From: Streptococcus mitis
Lineage (GTDB): Bacteria > Bacillota > Bacilli > Lactobacillales > Streptococcaceae
Direction of reading: 5' to 3'
Length of the DNA: 64,000 nucleotides
NCBI RefSeq assembly: GCF_001281025.1
Contig: NZ_CP012646.1
Coordinates: forward strand, 463,001-527,000
The notes beneath the pieces are model-generated. The model had not been told where the DNA came from and did no database searches. It saw nothing but the letters and a program-made list of their open reading frames with translations. Every line of letters begins with the position of its first letter. The stretch's first letter is position 1. Made by a program: the position numbers and the translations under genes. Below are positions 26,838 through 39,431 of the stretch, one piece after another.

Positions 26838-27695
26838 ATGCATGCATTATTAGCAACAAGATTAAAAAATAAGCGAAAAGAGCTGGGCTGGTCGCAAAAA
26901 GAGTTGGCAGAAGGAATTTGCCAACAAACTCAGATAAGTCGCATGGAACAAGGCAAATATATGCCAGGAGCAGATTTGTTATATAAATTATCTGAAAAAA
27001 TGGGCTTAAATATGGACTATTTCTTTTCAGGAGAAATTTCGAAAGAGTTTCTAGGCTTATCTGCTTTCAAGAGGTTGTCTGAAACATTGTTGGAAAATCA
27101 AGATTATGCCTCTCTGAAATATGCTTTTGAGGGAGAAAGAAAGCAACAGACTTCCTTATCTTTTGATGAAAAGATTTATCTGGACTGGATAGATGCCATT
27201 CTAACCTATCAATGTGAACATCAATTAAAACTAGCTATTTCAAAAATAGAAGACATCCTCAGTAGGATTAGTATTGAGAAAGTGGACTACTTGTATATTT
27301 TGAATACCCTGCTGATTTTCTTAGGCTATGATGAGGATAAGGAGAAATTTGAGCAACTATATGATCAGGTTTCCGTAGCTCTTTCAAAAATCGATACCAG
27401 TGTGCGTGAACAAATTGAGTTGTATATCAAAATAAAATACAATTATTGTTACCACCTTTGGAAACAGGAGGAGATGGATAAGTCCAGAGCTATATTATTG
27501 GAGATAATTAAATTTTGTAACAAGTATCATAGTAGCTTTAGACTAGCAGATTTATATTGTTTGTTGGGAAATGTAACAGAAAATCTTGATATCTCTGTTG
27601 CTAAGGACTATTATATGAAAGCTAAGGTACTCTATCTAATTGAAAATAATGAAGTTATGACACTCAAGGTAGAACAATATCTGATGGATAAGTAG
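26838..27695 (+). CDS. PlcR-like (RRNPP-type) peptide-sensing regulator
   Basis: A 285-residue regulator. An N-terminal helix-turn-helix (about residues 5-60, RKELGWSQKELAEGICQQTQ and ISRMEQGKYMPGADLL) is followed by a helical TPR-like region that fills the rest. This layout and the motif order match PlcR/TprA-type members of the RRNPP group, which respond to imported signalling peptides. ATG 26838 is chosen because GGTGG lies just upstream; in-frame GTG codons at 26826 and 26829 would add four or three residues. It lies immediately before the peptide/ABC operon at 27.9-31.7 kb and ends in its own terminator, so control of that operon is likely but inferred. The cognate peptide was not identified. 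Confidence 0.82.
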   Translation: MHALLATRLKNKRKELGWSQKELAEGICQQTQISRMEQGKYMPGADLLYKLSEKMGLNMDYFFSGEISKEFLGLSAFKRLSETLLENQDYASLKYAFEGERKQQTSLSFDEKIYLDWIDAILTYQCEHQLKLAISKIEDILSRISIEKVDYLYILNTLLIFLGYDEDKEKFEQLYDQVSVALSKIDTSVREQIELYIKIKYNYCYHLWKQEEMDKSRAILLEIIKFCNKYHSSFRLADLYCLLGNVTENLDISVAKDYYMKAKVLYLIENNEVMTLKVEQYLMDK

Positions 27696-27710
27696 TCAGA
27701 GAATGTATAA

Positions 27711-27733
27711 GGATAGCAGAAGCTATCTTTTTT
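27711..27733 (+). terminator. Intrinsic terminator after the PlcR-like gene
   Basis: GATAGC pairs with GCTATC around AGAA, then TTTTTT. Confidence 0.75.
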
Positions 27734-27794
27734 ATGTGCAAGATATAACTATAATTCTTCTTTTTAAAAATATCTAGTATGTTGCTTTAATTAC

Positions 27795-27823
27795 TTGACA
27801 GGTTATATATGTTGATTTATAAT
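27795..27823 (+). promoter_or_regulatory. Consensus promoter of the small-peptide/ABC operon
   Basis: A perfect TTGACA (27795-27800) and perfect TATAAT (27818-27823) are 17 bases apart. This is the strongest-looking promoter in the window. It reads into the 41-residue peptide gene at 27909 and the four genes beyond it. Confidence 0.85.
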
Positions 27824-27840
27824 ATAAGTGAAACGAGTTG

Positions 27841-27854
27841 TGTAAACGCTACCA
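27841..27854 (+). promoter_or_regulatory. cre (CcpA) site over the operon start
   Basis: TGTAAACGCTACCA matches the core cre pattern TGNAANCGNWNNCW fully; only the outermost W is different. It lies 17 bases past the -10 element, where CcpA binding would block elongation. Overlapping it is TACC-7-GGTA (27850-27864), a short inverted repeat that could be a regulator site. Confidence 0.6.
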
Positions 27855-27908
27855 AAAAACGGTATTCTTAACTTTGTATTTAGTCGAGAATTATGATGTA
27901 GCTAGGAA

Positions 27909-28034
27909 ATGGATGGAAAAATGTTTAGAAATAAGGAGCTTTTTCGAGTAGTCATGATATTTGTGATAGGAATTATCCTCATTTTAATGACACCCGCCTT
28001 ATTTAAAGTTGTTATGGAAATTTTTTCAAAATAA
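27909..28034 (+). CDS. Small single-span membrane peptide, 41 residues
   Basis: A 41-residue frame, first in the operon behind the consensus promoter. A charged start (MDGKMFRNKELFR) precedes one hydrophobic segment of about 20 residues (VVMIFVIGIILILMTPALF) and a short tail ending SK. It has no double-glycine leader and no signal-peptidase site, so it looks like a membrane peptide rather than a classical bacteriocin precursor. It could be a signalling peptide, toxin-like peptide or small subunit of the ABC exporter. The ribosome-binding site is weak (AGGAAA close to the ATG). Position in the operon supports it being real; function is unknown. Confidence 0.6.
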   Translation: MDGKMFRNKELFRVVMIFVIGIILILMTPALFKVVMEIFSK

Positions 28035-28039
28035 ATAGA

Positions 28040-28058
28040 CCTCTGCTCTAGGCAGAGG
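28040..28058 (+). other. Intercistronic hairpin without T tract
   Basis: CCTCTGC pairs with GCAGAGG around a 5-base loop. No T run follows, so it is not a standard terminator. It may set the ratio of the upstream peptide mRNA to the rest of the operon by acting as an RNA stabiliser. Confidence 0.5.
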
Positions 28059-28079
28059 CGTGAATCAGGAGGTTAAGTG

Positions 28080-28667
28080 ATGAACTACAATTTAAAATAT
28101 CTTTTATCAGGAATATTTGTCATAGTCTTTATAGGTTTTCTAGTCTGGATGCGTTATTTTAATCAGAAGAAGGAAGAAGAGCATTCGGATGTGTCTTTTG
28201 AAGCGAGGTTAGATAGTGAGGTCAAGACCTTATATAAACAACTAGCATTGAGTGAGGAACCTCACTATTTCTTAGCGTATCGCTACCTACATCCTTGGTT
28301 TAATTTGGCGATTTTACCACCAACAGTTGAAATTTTCTTAACTAAAATAGCGCTGGTGATGGTGACTCCAGATGAACTACTGATAAGAAATCTTGGGAAT
28401 GGGATGACTTTCACAAGTGAGCATCATCGTGATTTGCGGCAAGGACTTATCCGCATTCCAAAATCAGAGATGAAAGAATTTGAGATTCGTAACTGGAAAA
28501 AATTTTTTGTATTTGGCGATTTTTTGACAATTAAAACAAGCCAACATAGCTATTATTTGCAGGTTAGAGATGATGGACTTCAAAAAGGAAGTCTTTCTAC
28601 CAAACATTTCTCCGACTTGAAACGACAAGATTTTCTAGGATTATTAACAGATAAAAGAACATTCTGA
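28080..28667 (+). CDS. Membrane-anchored protein of unknown function
   Basis: A 195-residue protein with one N-terminal membrane segment (about residues 8-25, LLSGIFVIVFIGFLVWMRYF) followed by a soluble domain of about 165 residues that probably faces the cytoplasm because the segment is followed by NQKKEEE. The later part (VTPDELLIRNLGNG, RIPKSEMKEFEIRNW, FLTIKTSQHSYYLQV) has alternating beta strands like a PH-type membrane-associated fold. I do not recognise the family. ATG 28080 follows AGGAGG by 6 bases. It belongs to the peptide/ABC operon and could be the immunity or accessory factor; this is inference. Confidence 0.7.
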   Translation: MNYNLKYLLSGIFVIVFIGFLVWMRYFNQKKEEEHSDVSFEARLDSEVKTLYKQLALSEEPHYFLAYRYLHPWFNLAILPPTVEIFLTKIALVMVTPDELLIRNLGNGMTFTSEHHRDLRQGLIRIPKSEMKEFEIRNWKKFFVFGDFLTIKTSQHSYYLQVRDDGLQKGSLSTKHFSDLKRQDFLGLLTDKRTF

Positions 28668-28747
28668 TTGACAATTGCCCTAGTTGTTTATTTTAAACTT
28701 TACAAATAAGCTCTAAACACTAGAATCCCTTTAGAAAGGTAATTCCT

Positions 28748-28903
28748 ATGAAAAATAAAATTTTAATCATTGTTTATCTTTCAGCCTCGCTGTTCATCAG
28801 TTTTGTAATCTTTTCACTTTTACATATTGATTTTAAATGGTGGATAACTCTGGCTATAAGTGCAGGATTTATTTACACCTACTTAAAATTTAGTAAAAAA
28901 TAA
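28748..28903 (+). CDS. Small two-span membrane peptide, 51 residues
   Basis: A 51-residue frame preceded by AGAAAGG. It consists of two hydrophobic stretches (ILIIVYLSASLFISFVIF and WWITLAISAGFIYTYL) separated by a short HIDFK turn, with a basic tail KFSKK. It sits third in the operon between the 195-residue protein and the DUF1430 protein, 49 bases before the latter's start. No leader peptide or cleavage site is seen. It could be an immunity peptide or exporter subunit; function is unknown. Confidence 0.6.
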   Translation: MKNKILIIVYLSASLFISFVIFSLLHIDFKWWITLAISAGFIYTYLKFSKK

Positions 28904-28952
28904 AAATTACCTGCACCTATCTTACTTTCGTCTCTTCACGGGAGGTATCTCT

Positions 28953-31061
28953 ATGAAAAAAATCAGTCATCTTTGTATGCTCTTGCTTTTGCTGTGTACT
29001 ACGTTTTTTGTCCTGAATGTAAATGTTACACGTGAAATAGTGCGGATTCAGGAGATGGGCAAGACAACTTATTCATTTGACTTGTACTTGAAAGATGTCA
29101 CTAAACCGACAGAAACTATTCTCCAGTTTTTTGAAGAGGTTGCAAGTCAAGACAAGGTCTCTATTATCAAAGTAGATAATGGCGATGAGGTGGTCAAGGC
29201 TGGTGTTTTTGATAAGGAAACCTTCCCCTATCAGGAGTTCGGTCTGACTTCTCTTGATTTTTCAAAGAATGAGAAGGGGGTCTACAGCAACCAGGATCTT
29301 CCCAATAATCTAGGAACCATTCCCACCTTTTTAAAGGTGAAACTCATTCGACTCCAGACCTTCCAATCCTATATTGAGGATAAATCCCATACTGTAAATG
29401 GACGATACATGATTACCTCCAGCAAAGAGATAGATCGTGATACCATTCTACAAAAGTGGAGTGATTTTTTCCAGATAGATAAAACGATTTTATTAGAACC
29501 CACTTACCGAAGTCAGGTTGGAGTGCTAAATCAAGCTTTGTTACTATCTATCATTATCTTTATTTTGGCAATCTTGCTTGTGATTTTAATGACAGTTTAT
29601 CAGCCGATGATGGAGATGAAACGAGTGGGGGTTCAAAAGTTACTTGGTTTTCAAAGCAGGGCGATTTTAGCTGGTTTTGTAAAGACTAATTTTTATCTTC
29701 TCTTGGGTGGAAGTCTTATCATTGACTTGGGACTATTTTTAGTGCTGGACTACAGACCAAAACTTCTGTTCCCAAGTTTACTCTTATCCCAATTTCTGCT
29801 TTTACAGTTGTATTTGTTCATCAGTTGGCTGACCTACCTGATGATTCAGAAAATGACAGTCAGTTCCATGTTGAAAGGTTTTTCATCTGTCAAACTTGGT
29901 CTTATCTTCAATTATGTGATGAAAATAGGGACAACTATTTTACTGACGGCCTTACTGATTGGGGTGGGCAGAAGTTTAGAACAAGAAAACAAAGAACTTG
30001 CTTATCAGCAACAGTGGGTAAGCCAAGGGAATTACTTGACCTTAGAAACCTTCCAACTCAATGATAACCTGTGGCAAGAAGAGCTAGCAGGGTCAGGGAA
30101 ATCTACAGATTATTTCTACCAATTTTATCAAGATTTGTTAGCAAAAATACAAGTAAATTATGTGCGAAGTGCGAGTCTTCCTATCAAACCAGTCATCAAA
30201 GCAGAACAAGTGCAACAGTACCAACTGCCTGATAAGGTAGATGTTTACTATGCAAACCGTCAATTTTTAGACAGTCAGGGATTCAAGTTACCAGATACCG
30301 GCACTAAAAAAGTTATTTTGTTGCCAGCCAGTGACAAAGGACAAGAAGGCAAGAATCAGTTCTTGGGAAAATCCATCGCCTATCTTTCTCTGAGGTATGA
30401 AGATCAGCAAAAGCAAACAATAGAAGATATGGATGTAGAAATTGCCTACTATGAAGGAGATTGGTCTTTCTTCCCTTATAATAATGAGCGAAAGGAAAAT
30501 CTCCACAATCCAATCATTAGTCTGGTAAATGATCAAGACATGATGTGGGAAGAAAAGACTCACTTGTCAACGACAGGTTTAAACAACCCGATGAAAATTG
30601 AAAATACAGAACAAAATCAAAAAGTGATTACAGAGTTAATCGATAACTTATCTGATGGTAGCTATTTAAAATTTTCATCGATTCAAGCAATTCAAGAGGA
30701 GATGGTCGATACCTATCGGGATTCTGTTCGTAATTTTAACGTTCTTTTTGCCTTATTTGCTCTTCTCAGTATGATTGTCTCCTACTTTTTACTCGTTACC
30801 ACTTTCTTGTTGAAGCGCAGGGATATCATTACCAAGAAGTTTATGGGGTGGAAACTGGTCGATCGCTACCGAGCTCTCTTAGTTCTGCTCTTGCTGGGCT
30901 ATAGTCTCCCCCTTCTAGTCTTGATTTTCTTTGCCCATGCGTTCTTGCCACTTCTGCTGTTTGCAGGCTTTACATGTCTGGATATACTATTTGTGCTAGT
31001 TTTGGCTTCTAGGATGGAGAAAAGAAGTCTAGTAGAGTTATTGAAAGGGGGCATCTTATGA
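28953..31061 (+). CDS. Bacteriocin-associated integral membrane protein (DUF1430-like)
   Basis: A 702-residue membrane protein. One N-terminal membrane segment (residues 5-24) precedes a first extracellular domain, then four central membrane segments (about 190-340), a second extracellular domain (about 340-585), and three C-terminal segments (about 590-695). This MacB/FtsX-like layout is that of the DUF1430 proteins that accompany lactococcin 972-type bacteriocins as immunity or export permease. The downstream ATPase overlaps its stop by 4 bases, so the two form an ABC unit. No lactococcin 972-like precursor is present in the window. The start follows GGGAGG. Confidence 0.82.
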   Translation: MKKISHLCMLLLLLCTTFFVLNVNVTREIVRIQEMGKTTYSFDLYLKDVTKPTETILQFFEEVASQDKVSIIKVDNGDEVVKAGVFDKETFPYQEFGLTSLDFSKNEKGVYSNQDLPNNLGTIPTFLKVKLIRLQTFQSYIEDKSHTVNGRYMITSSKEIDRDTILQKWSDFFQIDKTILLEPTYRSQVGVLNQALLLSIIIFILAILLVILMTVYQPMMEMKRVGVQKLLGFQSRAILAGFVKTNFYLLLGGSLIIDLGLFLVLDYRPKLLFPSLLLSQFLLLQLYLFISWLTYLMIQKMTVSSMLKGFSSVKLGLIFNYVMKIGTTILLTALLIGVGRSLEQENKELAYQQQWVSQGNYLTLETFQLNDNLWQEELAGSGKSTDYFYQFYQDLLAKIQVNYVRSASLPIKPVIKAEQVQQYQLPDKVDVYYANRQFLDSQGFKLPDTGTKKVILLPASDKGQEGKNQFLGKSIAYLSLRYEDQQKQTIEDMDVEIAYYEGDWSFFPYNNERKENLHNPIISLVNDQDMMWEEKTHLSTTGLNNPMKIENTEQNQKVITELIDNLSDGSYLKFSSIQAIQEEMVDTYRDSVRNFNVLFALFALLSMIVSYFLLVTTFLLKRRDIITKKFMGWKLVDRYRALLVLLLLGYSLPLLVLIFFAHAFLPLLLFAGFTCLDILFVLVLASRMEKRSLVELLKGGIL

Positions 31062-31687
31062 TTGAGTTGGAAAATATTACCAAAACCATTGGGGGAAAAG
31101 TGATTTTGGATAACTTGTCTCTCAGGATTGATCAGGGGGATTTGGTAGCCATTGTTGGTAAGAGTGGTAGTGGTAAGTCGACCTTGTTAAATTTATTAGG
31201 TTTGATAGATAGTGATTACAGTGGACGGTATGAGATTTTTGGTCAGACAAATCTAGCGGTCAATTCTGCCAAGTCGCAAATAATAATCCGTGAACACATC
31301 TCTTATCTATTTCAAAATTTTGCCCTGATTGATGATGAAACGGTCGAGTACAATCTCATGCTTGCGCTGAAATATGTGAAATTGTCCAAGAAAGACAAGC
31401 TCAAAAAGGTGGAAGAGATTTTAGATAGAGTAGGTTTGTCAGCTACTTTGCATCAAAAGGTCTCTGAGTTGTCTGGTGGCGAACAACAACGAATTGCAGT
31501 TGCTAGAGCCATCTTAAAACCCAGCCAGCTGATTTTAGCCGATGAACCAACAGGTTCTCTGGATCCTGAAAATAGAGATTTGGTCTTGAAGTTTCTCTTA
31601 GAGATGAATCGCGAGGGGAAAACAGTCATTATCGTGACCCACGATGCCTATGTAGCCCAACAATGCCATCGAATCATTGAATTGTAA
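31058..31687 (+). CDS. Bacteriocin-type export ABC transporter ATPase
   Basis: A 209-residue ABC ATPase of the LolD/MacB group. Walker A is GKSGSGKST at residues 34-42, the signature is LSGGEQQR and Walker B is LILADEPTGSLD. It is the short form usual for the lactococcin 972-group exporters. Its ATG overlaps the DUF1430 stop (ATGA), so it is translationally coupled to that permease, with which it should form the transporter. The operon continues no further; a 592-base gap to mnmA follows. Confidence 0.9.
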   Translation: MIELENITKTIGGKVILDNLSLRIDQGDLVAIVGKSGSGKSTLLNLLGLIDSDYSGRYEIFGQTNLAVNSAKSQIIIREHISYLFQNFALIDDETVEYNLMLALKYVKLSKKDKLKKVEEILDRVGLSATLHQKVSELSGGEQQRIAVARAILKPSQLILADEPTGSLDPENRDLVLKFLLEMNREGKTVIIVTHDAYVAQQCHRIIEL

Positions 31688-32139
31688 AAAATACAGAAAT
31701 CTTATCAAAAATCTTTAAATTTAAGGATACCTTTAAAATTTAATTTTAAAACACTCATTTATCAACATTTTTGATTGATAAAAATAGGAAATCGGTTGTT
31801 TTTGGGAGATTCCCTAAAATTACCTCCTAACCACACGTACTAAAAAGATACTTCCTATGGAAATCGTATGACTTTGAAGCTTCGAATAGTTCAGTTTTCA
31901 TGATTTTTATGCTATTCTAGCTTTAAAATCCTTCAGAACGTAAAATTTTAAGCAGTCAAAGATTTAGAATATCCCTAAAACATTTATTTTATGGCAATTC
32001 TAAACGTAGAATTGCGTGGATATGTATGGATTTAATCTATTCGATAGTTAGGACAGCTCTATTCTGGGAAATCTGAGCGATCAATGGTTTAGAACAGCAT
32101 TTCAACAATGGATTTTGTTGAAGGATTGATTATTTTATA

Positions 32140-33401
<1,262 letters not shown>

Positions 33402-38921: not shown

Positions 38922-39098
38922 TTAATGATTCTTCTGCTCAAAAATAGAGTTGAAGACTAAAAACAAAACAATACAAACAGATAAATCGATTGGTAAAGGG
39001 ATAGTAGTAATGTTTAAATCATTGAGAATGCTGAGCAAACTATAAGAGATAAAGATAATAAAATTTATCCTTCTAAAAATGTGTTTTTTATCTAGCAT
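38922..39098 (-). CDS. Putative bacteriocin immunity peptide
   Basis: A 58-residue hydrophobic frame on the reverse strand. It has a basic start (MLDKKHIFRRINF), two membrane segments (FIIFISYSLLSIL and LSVCIVLFLVFNSIF) and a charged tail EQKNH. Its ATG lies inside the last codons of the double-glycine peptide gene upstream, overlapping by 7 bases, a coupling typical of bacteriocin-immunity pairs. Small two-span proteins of this kind protect producers of class II bacteriocins. No sequence family was recognised; the role is inferred from size, topology and overlap. Confidence 0.65.
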   Translation of the reverse strand: MLDKKHIFRRINFIIFISYSLLSILNDLNITTIPLPIDLSVCIVLFLVFNSIFEQKNH

Positions 39099-39244
39099 GA
39101 CTTACCAAACTTTTTACGAAGGTCTTTTCCAATGGTATAACCTGCCATAAATAAAGCGATACCAACACCTACACCAAAACCACCCTTTATTTCTTGCAAT
39201 TCCTTATTAGAAATTTCACAATAGTTGTTCAAATCTTTCATCAT
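39092..39244 (-). CDS. Double-glycine bacteriocin-like peptide, second of pair
   Basis: A 50-residue precursor. The leader MMKDLNNYCEISNKELQEIK ends in GG at residues 21-22, matching the consensus LSxxELxxIxGG. The mature 28 residues are FGVGVGIALFMAGYTIGK then DLRKKFGKSC, with GxxxG motifs (GVGVG, GYTIG) and a basic C-terminus as in one chain of two-peptide (class IIb) bacteriocins. It starts after AGGAGGAG. It is 1 base beyond the stop of the other peptide gene. No peptidase-containing ABC exporter is next to it, so export by a BlpAB- or ComAB-type transporter elsewhere is assumed. Confidence 0.82.
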   Translation of the reverse strand: MMKDLNNYCEISNKELQEIKGGFGVGVGIALFMAGYTIGKDLRKKFGKSC

Positions 39245-39245
39245 A

Positions 39246-39431
39246 TTAATCTCCTCCTAAAAAATAACCAGCTGCCAAACCAGAACCTATAAGTGCTGTT
39301 CCACCTGCAATAGCTTTCCAAGATACTGCCACTCCAAAGATAACCAAGGGAGCGAGACCGCCATCAATATCTGATAATTCATTTTCAGATAAGGATAAAA
39401 ATTGATTGTCAAGAACGTCAAAATTTGTCAT
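39246..39431 (-). CDS. Double-glycine bacteriocin-like peptide, first of pair
   Basis: A 61-residue precursor. The leader (FLSLSENELSDIDGG, GG at residues 24-25) fits the double-glycine consensus. The mature part LAPLVIFGVAVSWKAIAGG then TALIGSGLAAGYFLGGD is hydrophobic and glycine-rich with a GLAAG motif, as in class IIb bacteriocin chains. The ribosome-binding site AAGGAGG is strong, and TATAAA on the reverse strand about 45 bases upstream is a likely -10. No ComE- or BlpR-type direct repeat was recognised in the promoter. It heads a three-gene cassette with the second peptide and an immunity-like gene. Confidence 0.85.
   Translation of the reverse strand: MTNFDVLDNQFLSLSENELSDIDGGLAPLVIFGVAVSWKAIAGGTALIGSGLAAGYFLGGD

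What the first reader, a model, noticed from the sequence alone, without database searches (positions are those of the whole stretch)
26838..31687. PlcR-like regulator beside a five-gene membrane-peptide/ABC operon without a recognisable bacteriocin
The operon at 27909-31687 has a perfect TTGACA-17-TATAAT promoter, a cre site over the start, a 41-residue membrane peptide, an unknown 195-residue anchored protein, a 51-residue two-span peptide, a DUF1430-like membrane protein and an overlapping ABC ATPase. DUF1430 plus this ATPase usually go with a lactococcin 972-type precursor, yet none is present. The first gene is instead a hydrophobic peptide with no leader. A peptide-sensing type regulator ends just upstream. 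This could be a peptide export, signalling or self-defence system of an undescribed kind; seen directly are order, motifs and promoter, while the function is inferred.
Basis: partly seen in the sequence, partly recalled or inferred. Interest (0 to 1): 0.75.

Follow-up and report, generated by a model that had tools for sequence, protein, structure and literature searches.

The report
Bacteriocin-immunity operon without its bacteriocin
This oral-streptococcus operon looks like a stack of self-protection genes left over from several bacteriocin systems, with no bacteriocin gene beside them and part of the outward-facing protein exchanged; loci that keep only protection genes are known, but the exchanged piece makes it testable what recognises the toxin.

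Summary
The six genes are real and where stated. The pair at 28953-31687 is the B/C pair of a lactococcin 972-type ("streptococcin") cluster (TIGR01654, TIGR03608), in a recombination hotspot between sdaAB/lysM and mnmA. In 11 of 37 distinct loci a lactococcin 972 gene stands directly before B; in the window and 15 others a 51-aa gene (p51) stands there with the same variant of B. Relatives of p51 sit behind secreted bacteriocin-like proteins (f37) in 7 of 13 genomes; this genome has no f37. The 195-aa protein is a membrane-anchored, probably PH-like domain, conserved (dN/dS 0.13), and separable from B/C. B is chimeric: residues 26-225 (outer domain) come in two types that change sharply at the second membrane span; the window type goes with p51 (16 of 17) and never with lactococcin 972 (0 of 11). 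The regulator is TprA-like, but its usual peptide gene is gone and that gene's promoter now stands before p41-p195. Best reading: an orphan, perhaps retargeted, immunity array. Toxin-less streptococcin loci and switching hotspots beside TprA/Rgg are published, so this is a new variant of a known kind. No function was tested; the outer-domain link could be hitch-hiking.

The parts
26838..27695 (+). REG: HTH regulator of TprA/PlcR type (285 aa); the 47-aa Phr-like peptide gene that usually follows it is absent here
   Evidence: HTH_3 51.6 bits; TPR_12 14.9 bits, below cut-off; 38% identical over 284 residues to the TprA of this genome, which stands beside a PhrA ending LDVGKAD; phr47 follows REG in 6 related loci, no intact match in this genome
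27795..27823 (+). perfect sigma-70 promoter, the phr47 promoter of relatives
   Evidence: a 30-nt pattern over it occurs once in the genome at up to 3 mismatches
27834..27885 (+). fusion segment between the phr47-type promoter and the p41 unit, with a cre-like site at 27840-27855
   Evidence: homology to REG-phr47 loci ends at 27824-27833, to p41 loci begins at 27886-27892; L064 matches straight through at 90%; shared with L163 at 94%, seen diverged in L157, L174, L175
27921..28034 (+). p41: 37-aa single-span hydrophobic peptide (start at 27909 unlikely)
   Evidence: dN/dS 0.45 over 8 sequences, weak
28080..28667 (+). p195: one membrane helix (3-34), then a probable PH-like domain
28748..28903 (+). 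p51: 51-aa two-span protein, probable orphan immunity protein of f37-type secreted bacteriocin-like proteins
   Evidence: family lies 8-60 bp downstream of an f37-family match in 7 of 13 genomes with f37; dN/dS 0.23
28953..31061 (+). B protein (702 aa): TIGR01654 'bacteriocin-associated integral membrane protein'
29028..29627 (+). codons 26-225 of B: exchanged outer domain, type I
30660..30767 (+). codons 570-605 of B: second segment that partly follows the outer-domain type
   Evidence: imperfect
31058..31687 (+). C protein (209 aa): ABC ATPase, TIGR03608
26054..26704 (+). left edge of the hotspot: LysM protein (sdaAB beyond it)
32283..33401 (+). right edge of the hotspot: mnmA

Best explanation
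An orphan bacteriocin-immunity array in a known kind of bacteriocin-switching hotspot. The ancestral-looking unit is [peptide-sensing regulator] - lactococcin 972-type toxin - B - C. In this lineage recombination put a tract with p195, p51 and another outer domain of B in place of the toxin gene and the old outer domain. p51 would protect the membrane against an f37-type secreted bacteriocin; p195, a PH-like domain held at the membrane, would be an accessory or immunity protein; B/C would be an ATP-driven machine that removes or expels a bacteriocin recognised by B's outer domain, perhaps no longer the local lactococcin 972. A second event put the operon behind a phr47-type promoter next to its TprA-like regulator while the pheromone gene was lost, so the operon would be derepressed by a peptide made by neighbours, or stay in one state. 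Shown: gene identities, rearrangements, the domain exchange, purifying selection. Inferred: every function, the regulator's action on this promoter, the recognition role and outside position of the outer domain, the order of events.
For: B and C family matches. Gene orders in 35 fetched stretches and 25 named loci. Of 37 distinct loci with intact B (window included; table put together by hand, counted): lactococcin 972 directly before B in 11, all outer-domain type II; p51 before B in 17, 16 of them type I. Nucleotide identity of B to the lactococcin-linked L080 is 65-88% per 60-nt block over nt 1-660 and 95-100% over 661-1260. Outer-domain tree: the 9 p51 rows form one group, 100/100; backbone 225-560: not one group, at least 2 changes forced. 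p51 family beside f37 in 7 of 13 genomes with f37; no f37 match in this genome. dN/dS 0.13 for p195, 0.13 for B, 0.23 for p51, 0.11 for REG. phr47 promoter before p41, the only such promoter in the genome; no intact phr47 in the genome.
Against: The p51/outer-domain link can be plain hitch-hiking: they are about 50 bp apart and travel in one tract. L170 has p51 with type II, L169 type I without p51, and 26 of 233 metagenome B proteins are mosaic in the outer domain. The second segment follows the type in only 57 of 89 type I proteins. f37 is bacteriocin-like by build and gene order only, and matches no family; in 6 of 13 genomes with f37 no p51 match lies beside it. p195's model is of modest confidence, and PH-like domains do many things. 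In L053 and L054 f37, its own p51 and a type I B lie in one locus, so 'no bacteriocin' is not true of the whole type I group. Published scbBC strains without the toxin were still killed by streptococcin B (PMC11796350). The loci are kin, so the Fisher p-values (2e-8, 2e-4) overstate independence.
Confidence: 0.55

Rival explanations
1. Plain 'cheater': B/C still protect against the lactococcin 972-type bacteriocin of neighbours, and the outer-domain exchange is neutral variation carried along with p195/p51.
For: Toxin-less streptococcin loci that keep B and C are common and were read this way (PMC6120550 Results; PMC11796350 Discussion). Toxin-less type II loci exist here too: 8 of the 19 type II loci without p51 have no lactococcin 972 before B (2 of the 8 have f35 there).
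Against: Type I is never beside lactococcin 972 (0 of 11), the exchange stops at the end of the outer domain, and type II is 91-98% identical to L080 even where the backbone is only 79-83% identical, as if matched to something.
Confidence: 0.17
2. Leaderless-peptide system: p41 is an active membrane peptide made without leader, p195 a PH-domain partner as in enterocin DD14, B/C its exporter.
For: PH-domain proteins DdE/DdF are needed to export the leaderless EntDD14 (PMC8657885 abstract); p195 is PH-like and sits between a leaderless peptide and an ABC pair; p41 has net charge +3 (counted from the sequence).
Against: 11 of 23 named p195 loci with enough DNA lack an intact p41 (the 43% relative in L180 counted as lacking); p41 stands with Rgg but without p195 in 6 genomes and alone in 2; p41 is a very hydrophobic span (peak hydropathy 2.9); B/C belongs to the lactococcin 972 group.
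Confidence: 0.08
3. Signalling module: p41 is the pheromone precursor of the divergent Rgg in relatives, and the window keeps it by descent.
For: p41 family starts about 130 bp from a divergent Rgg in L141-L146 although p195 is missing there.
Against: The window has lost that Rgg; two p41 relatives have no Rgg in view (L147, L148); 37 aa is longer than usual SHPs (recalled).
Confidence: 0.1
4. Decaying leftovers of recombination with no present function.
For: Some sister loci have broken B (L066, L082, L083) or broken p41 (L054, L057, L064).
Against: Intact frames here and low dN/dS for p195, p51, B and REG.
Confidence: 0.07

Closest known systems
Streptococcin (lactococcin 972-like) clusters A-E of pneumococcus, partial forms with B and C only
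   Same: Same B/C families, chromosomal hotspot, toxin missing, Rgg/PlcR-type regulators nearby (PMC6120550, PMC11796350)
   Different: p41-p195-p51 stand where the toxin is elsewhere; B has another outer domain; which letter (A-E) this site corresponds to was not established
TprA/PhrA quorum sensing
   Same: Same regulator type, 38% identical; relatives have a Phr-like gene right after it; cre-like site near the promoter, as for phrA (PMC7595303 passages)
   Different: No intact peptide gene in this genome; in relatives regulator and peptide run in the same direction, whereas tprA/phrA are opposed (PMC7595303 passages)
EntV-type secreted bacteriocins
   Same: f43, found in L059 and L065 just upstream of p195, matches EntV_fam at 5e-14; f37 has a similar build
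   Different: 52.5 bits is below that model's cut-off of 130; f37 does not match; none is in the window
PH-domain proteins of leaderless bacteriocin operons (DdE/DdF of enterocin DD14)
   Same: PH-like domain, membrane anchor, ABC transporter in the operon
   Different: p195 has no Pfam bPH match and no demonstrated leaderless bacteriocin beside it

Membership tests
streptococcin / lactococcin 972 cluster | B protein, TIGR01654 | tested here: met
   585 bits, cut-off 189
streptococcin / lactococcin 972 cluster | C protein, TIGR03608 | tested here: met
   293 bits, cut-off 255
streptococcin / lactococcin 972 cluster | toxin gene (PF09683/TIGR01653) before B | tested here: not met
   only one PF09683 match in the genome, at another locus
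TprA/Phr system | HTH regulator of the TprA type | tested here: met
TprA/Phr system | Phr precursor gene beside the regulator | tested here: not met
   absent in the locus; best match in the genome E 0.07 with three stops inside; present after REG in 6 relatives
TprA/Phr system | CRE in the regulated promoter | tested here: inconclusive
   2 mismatches, not above chance alone; 1 mismatch in three relatives, 3 in a fourth
SHP/Rgg system | rgg next to the peptide gene | tested here: not met
   no Rgg in the window locus; present in relatives
EntV-type bacteriocin with immunity gene | EntV-like precursor next to p51 | tested here: not met
   no f37 match in the genome; f37 matches no EntV model
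leaderless bacteriocin operon | PH-domain protein | tested here: inconclusive
leaderless bacteriocin operon | active leaderless peptide | not testable with these tools
   needs purification or synthesis
FtsX/MacB-type ABC permease | FtsX-type membrane domain in B | tested here: inconclusive
   profile comparison with 4 FtsX-domain sequences puts a loop of B on their conserved loop: probability 35% (first half), 4.7% (second half); the B model was too poor to use

The most novel reading that the evidence does not exclude
B proteins of lactococcin 972-type clusters carry an exchangeable outward-facing recognition cassette (residues 26-225). Recombination swaps it together with the upstream cargo, so the same ABC engine is re-aimed from one bacteriocin to another. 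The window is a re-aimed, cargo-free version combined with p195 and p51 into a multi-bacteriocin protection operon, run by a TprA-like regulator whose own pheromone gene is deleted, so that it listens to the pheromone of neighbours.
Probability: 0.28. Interest if true: 0.7.

Novelty: new variant of a known kind. Interest (0 to 1): 0.45.

Why it matters
[quoted passage not shown] Natural B proteins that share a backbone but differ in one bounded outer domain, linked to different upstream genes, give a ready-made swap experiment for which part recognises the toxin. The locus also shows how commensal streptococci may pile up immunity genes without making bacteriocins, and it gives a likely role (p51) or fold (p195) to two families without an annotation in Pfam or NCBIfam.

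Tried and rejected
Rfam scan: only a sub-threshold SpF03 match at 32099-32182. Hairpin between p41 and p195: in the alignment of 19 sequences several rows break the stem (looked at, not counted). p51 as CAAX protease (17.0 bits, cut-off 22.4): rejected for length and context. p195: no family above cut-off even when listing to E 10. FtsX link of B: weak. AlphaFold2 of B: pLDDT 42.3, pTM 0.26, not searched further. Second segment (residues 570-605) as proof of functional coupling: downgraded after the larger sample showed only partial linkage. Locus tags SP_0108 to SP_0111 as an entry to the literature: 0 papers. PhrB/PhrC (named in PMC7595303): not in PMC5436883, so whether phr47 is one of them is open. 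dN/dS for C came out at 0.18 over 29 rows, but that set was picked by label and may hold other ABC proteins, so I do not use it. The ten paper searches were made; p41/p195/p51 have no name to search for, so I do not claim that they are absent from print. In the VIA-align rows no non-PH fold stood out to me (fold names partly recalled).
Full report
WHAT IS THERE. The six frames of the finding are at the stated places. The membrane protein and the ATPase are the B and C proteins of lactococcin 972-type clusters: TIGR01654 at 585 bits (cut-off 189) and TIGR03608 at 293 bits (cut-off 255). The regulator has an HTH_3 domain and a TPR signal below cut-off, and is 38% identical over 284 residues to the genome's own TprA, which stands beside a PhrA precursor ending in LDVGKAD (that this is the PhrA motif is recalled). 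p41, p195 and p51 match no Pfam or NCBIfam family above cut-off. The first peptide most likely starts at 27921 and has 37 residues, because relatives keep only that start. The promoter is perfect. The cre-like site is weak by itself; at the same place L157, L174 and L175 have a site with one mismatch, L163 one with three.

THE TOXIN IS MISSING. The genome has three B-type matches and one lactococcin 972 match, which lies beside another of the three; the locus at 995743 has no toxin match either. Of 197 genus genomes, 101 have a B-type match and 89 one above the cut-off.

THE LOCUS IS A HOTSPOT. I fetched 35 stretches around B or p195 matches (L068, L069, L084 and L085 lie at other sites) and 25 named loci with p195, and laid out their genes. 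Between sdaAB/lysM and mnmA, cassettes are shuffled: a divergent Rgg, p41-p195, p51, a REG-phr47 unit, lactococcin 972, B-C, an amino-acid binding protein with argG and argH, other ABC transporters, and five kinds of secreted 180-206-residue proteins (f37, f43, f35 and two seen once). One of these, f43, matches EntV_fam at 5e-14, below that model's cut-off; one lactococcin 972 copy (from L055) was confirmed against PF09683 and TIGR01653, the others follow from similarity to it. Rezaei Javan et al. (PMC6120550; abstract, Results, passages of the Discussion) describe such bacteriocin cluster hotspots, partial streptococcin clusters that mostly lack the toxin, and switching next to TprA and Rgg regulators that stay. 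Richardson et al. (PMC11796350; abstract, two of three parts of Results, Discussion) show that scbABC is an active lactococcin 972-like system, report that 27.5% (157 of 571) and 24% (150 of 617) of pneumococcal genomes have only scbBC, and say that the functions of B and C have not been verified in any such locus. So a B/C pair without its toxin is known.

THE SMALL GENES ARE SEPARABLE MODULES. p195 is in 17 of 197 genus genomes. The named collection gave 25 loci, all Streptococcus (S. mitis, pneumoniae, pseudopneumoniae, thalassemiae, hohhotensis and unnamed species): 23 full-length at 92-97% identity, one fragment, and one 43% relative in Streptococcus sp. DD10; each of the 25 shows at least one marker of this site (sdaAB/lysM, argG or mnmA). 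It occurs without the pair (L060, L063) and apart from it (L055, L157, L163, L166). In the genus sample 13 of 25 intact B loci of this subtype have p195 in the locus and 12 do not; of 30 B loci of this and the next subtype that I fetched, L066, L082 and L083 are broken and L084 and L085 are a distant subtype (their outer domain 48% identical, with lactococcin 972 before B), so these five were left out, as was a partial second match in G029 that I did not fetch. p41 is in 16 of 197 genomes: 8 with p195 beside it, 6 with a divergent Rgg but no p195, 2 elsewhere. p51-family matches are in 21 of 197 genomes: 10 before B, 7 beside f37 (two genomes in both), 6 elsewhere. f37-family matches are in 13; in 7 of those 13 (G033, G039, G066, G155, G164, G170, G181) the p51 match lies 8-60 bp downstream of the f37 match, in 6 it does not. 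In G170 and G181 only the end of f37 matches. p51 is most simply the immunity partner of f37-type proteins, left here as an orphan: this genome has no f37 match.

SELECTION. Over the sampled copies dN/dS is 0.13 for p195 (16 copies), 0.13 for B (25), 0.23 for p51 (10), 0.11 for REG (7), 0.45 for p41 (8, very short). p195, p51, B and REG look like used genes; p41 is not settled.

B IS A CHIMERA. Aligned in 50-residue blocks, B proteins beside p51 match a set of type II B proteins at only 60-66% over residues 51-200 but 80-100% elsewhere, while two sets of type II B proteins are 97-98% alike in that part and 56-88% elsewhere. Against L080 the window's gene is 65-88% identical in each 60-nt block up to nt 660 and 95-100% in the next ten blocks. 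In a tree of residues 25-200 the 9 p51 rows form one group (100/100; bootstrap not fully settled); in a tree of residues 225-560 they do not (3 changes, at least 2 forced by well-supported branches). In 37 distinct loci with an intact B, window included: p51 directly upstream, 16 type I and 1 type II; lactococcin 972 directly upstream, 0 and 11; p195 directly upstream, 1 and 2; nothing found or f35, 0 and 6 (a table put together by hand). Among 233 metagenome-derived B proteins of 702 residues (of 236 listed by two searches that each show only the best 120, so not population frequencies) 89 are type I, 118 type II and 26 mosaic. Association of single sites with the type is 0.85-1.00 per 25-residue block over residues 26-225 and 0.18-0.50 after that (207 proteins; up to residue 195 the high values follow from how the type was defined). 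A second stretch (570-605) follows the type in part: 57 of 89 and 104 of 118. The edge sits in the second membrane span, so the exchanged piece would be the domain outside the cell; hydropathy places spans at 2-27 and 187-222, and the outside orientation is inferred from the basic loop after span 2.

WHAT THE PROMOTER IS. The DNA from 26600 to 27833 matches the REG-phr47 unit of relatives at about 95%, and from 27886-27892 on it matches the p41-p195 unit. The promoter is the phr47 promoter. phr47, a 47-residue peptide with a hydrophobic start and ending in GIDTGAYYSPS or -SPG, follows REG in 6 of the 7 loci that hold REG (the exception is the window); among the named loci L162 also has REG without it. 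This genome has no intact match (best E 0.07, three stops inside). The promoter motif occurs once in the genome. L163 has the same promoter, segment, p41 and p195 behind a partial REG match, and L157, L174 and L175 have the promoter before p195 without REG, so the arrangement is shared rather than an assembly error. In pneumococcus Tpr proteins mostly repress, the imported Phr peptide relieves repression, and the phrA promoter holds a CRE (PMC7595303, passages). An orphan Tpr on this promoter would answer to peptides from other cells, or not at all.

HOW IT MOST LIKELY WORKS. Outside bacteriocins meet three layers: p51 in the membrane (against f37-like proteins), p195 at the membrane, and the B/C transporter that pulls or pumps off what its outer domain binds. 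Transcription is set by the TprA-like regulator and perhaps by sugar. All of this is inference from anatomy and neighbours.

WHAT SPEAKS AGAINST IT. The domain/cargo match may be hitch-hiking: p51 ends about 50 bp before B. L169, L170 and the mosaics break the rule. L053 and L054 hold f37 and a type I B in one locus, so type I is not always cargo-free. f37's bacteriocin nature is not shown. p195 has no assigned role. The loci are kin, so the statistics are soft. In pneumococcus, scbBC strains were killed by streptococcin B producers, which the authors put down to lack of expression.

VERDICT. Real, selected, and mostly explained: a rearranged, toxin-less streptococcin-type locus with orphan immunity-type genes. 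The part not seen in the few papers I read (six opened, listed above with PMC5436883) is the bounded exchange of B's outer domain together with its upstream genes.

Noticed in passing
window 38922-39431, minus strand: Two peptides with double-glycine leaders (61 aa at 39246-39431, 50 aa at 39092-39244) and a 58-aa hydrophobic frame after them: looks like a two-peptide bacteriocin; no exporter gene was looked for.
   Followed up: no
G000:C1:995743-997761 (L005, L068): A second B/C pair of the genome with no lactococcin 972 match, between a GTPase gene (bipA-like, by recall) and murD (by recall); its B is 19% identical to the window's B.
   Followed up: partly
L155 4328-7583 (G000:C1, about 1808300-1811600): Next to the genome's TprA/PhrA pair (PhrA ending LDVGKAD) lie a 93-residue hydrophobic peptide, small membrane proteins and an ABC transporter, which resembles a circular-bacteriocin cluster (by recall) rather than lantibiotic genes.
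   Followed up: no
L053 6398-6979, L059 7369-7926, L065 9786-10397, L074 7883-8503, L062 8662-9204 (oriented coordinates): Five different secreted proteins of 180-206 residues, mostly with hydrophobic, glycine-rich ends, share this hotspot; three of them (L053, L065, L074) have a 51-61-residue hydrophobic gene beside them and one (L059) matches EntV_fam. They may be a varied family of EntV-like bacteriocins of streptococci.
   Followed up: partly
L147 6183-6287, L148 6450-6554 (oriented): 34-residue relatives of p41 stand in two other Streptococcus genomes with no Rgg or bacteriocin gene in view; the p41 family may have a role of its own.
   Followed up: no
window 32099-32182: Sub-threshold match (32.3 bits, gathering 50) to the Streptococcus sRNA SpF03 just upstream of mnmA.
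   Followed up: no
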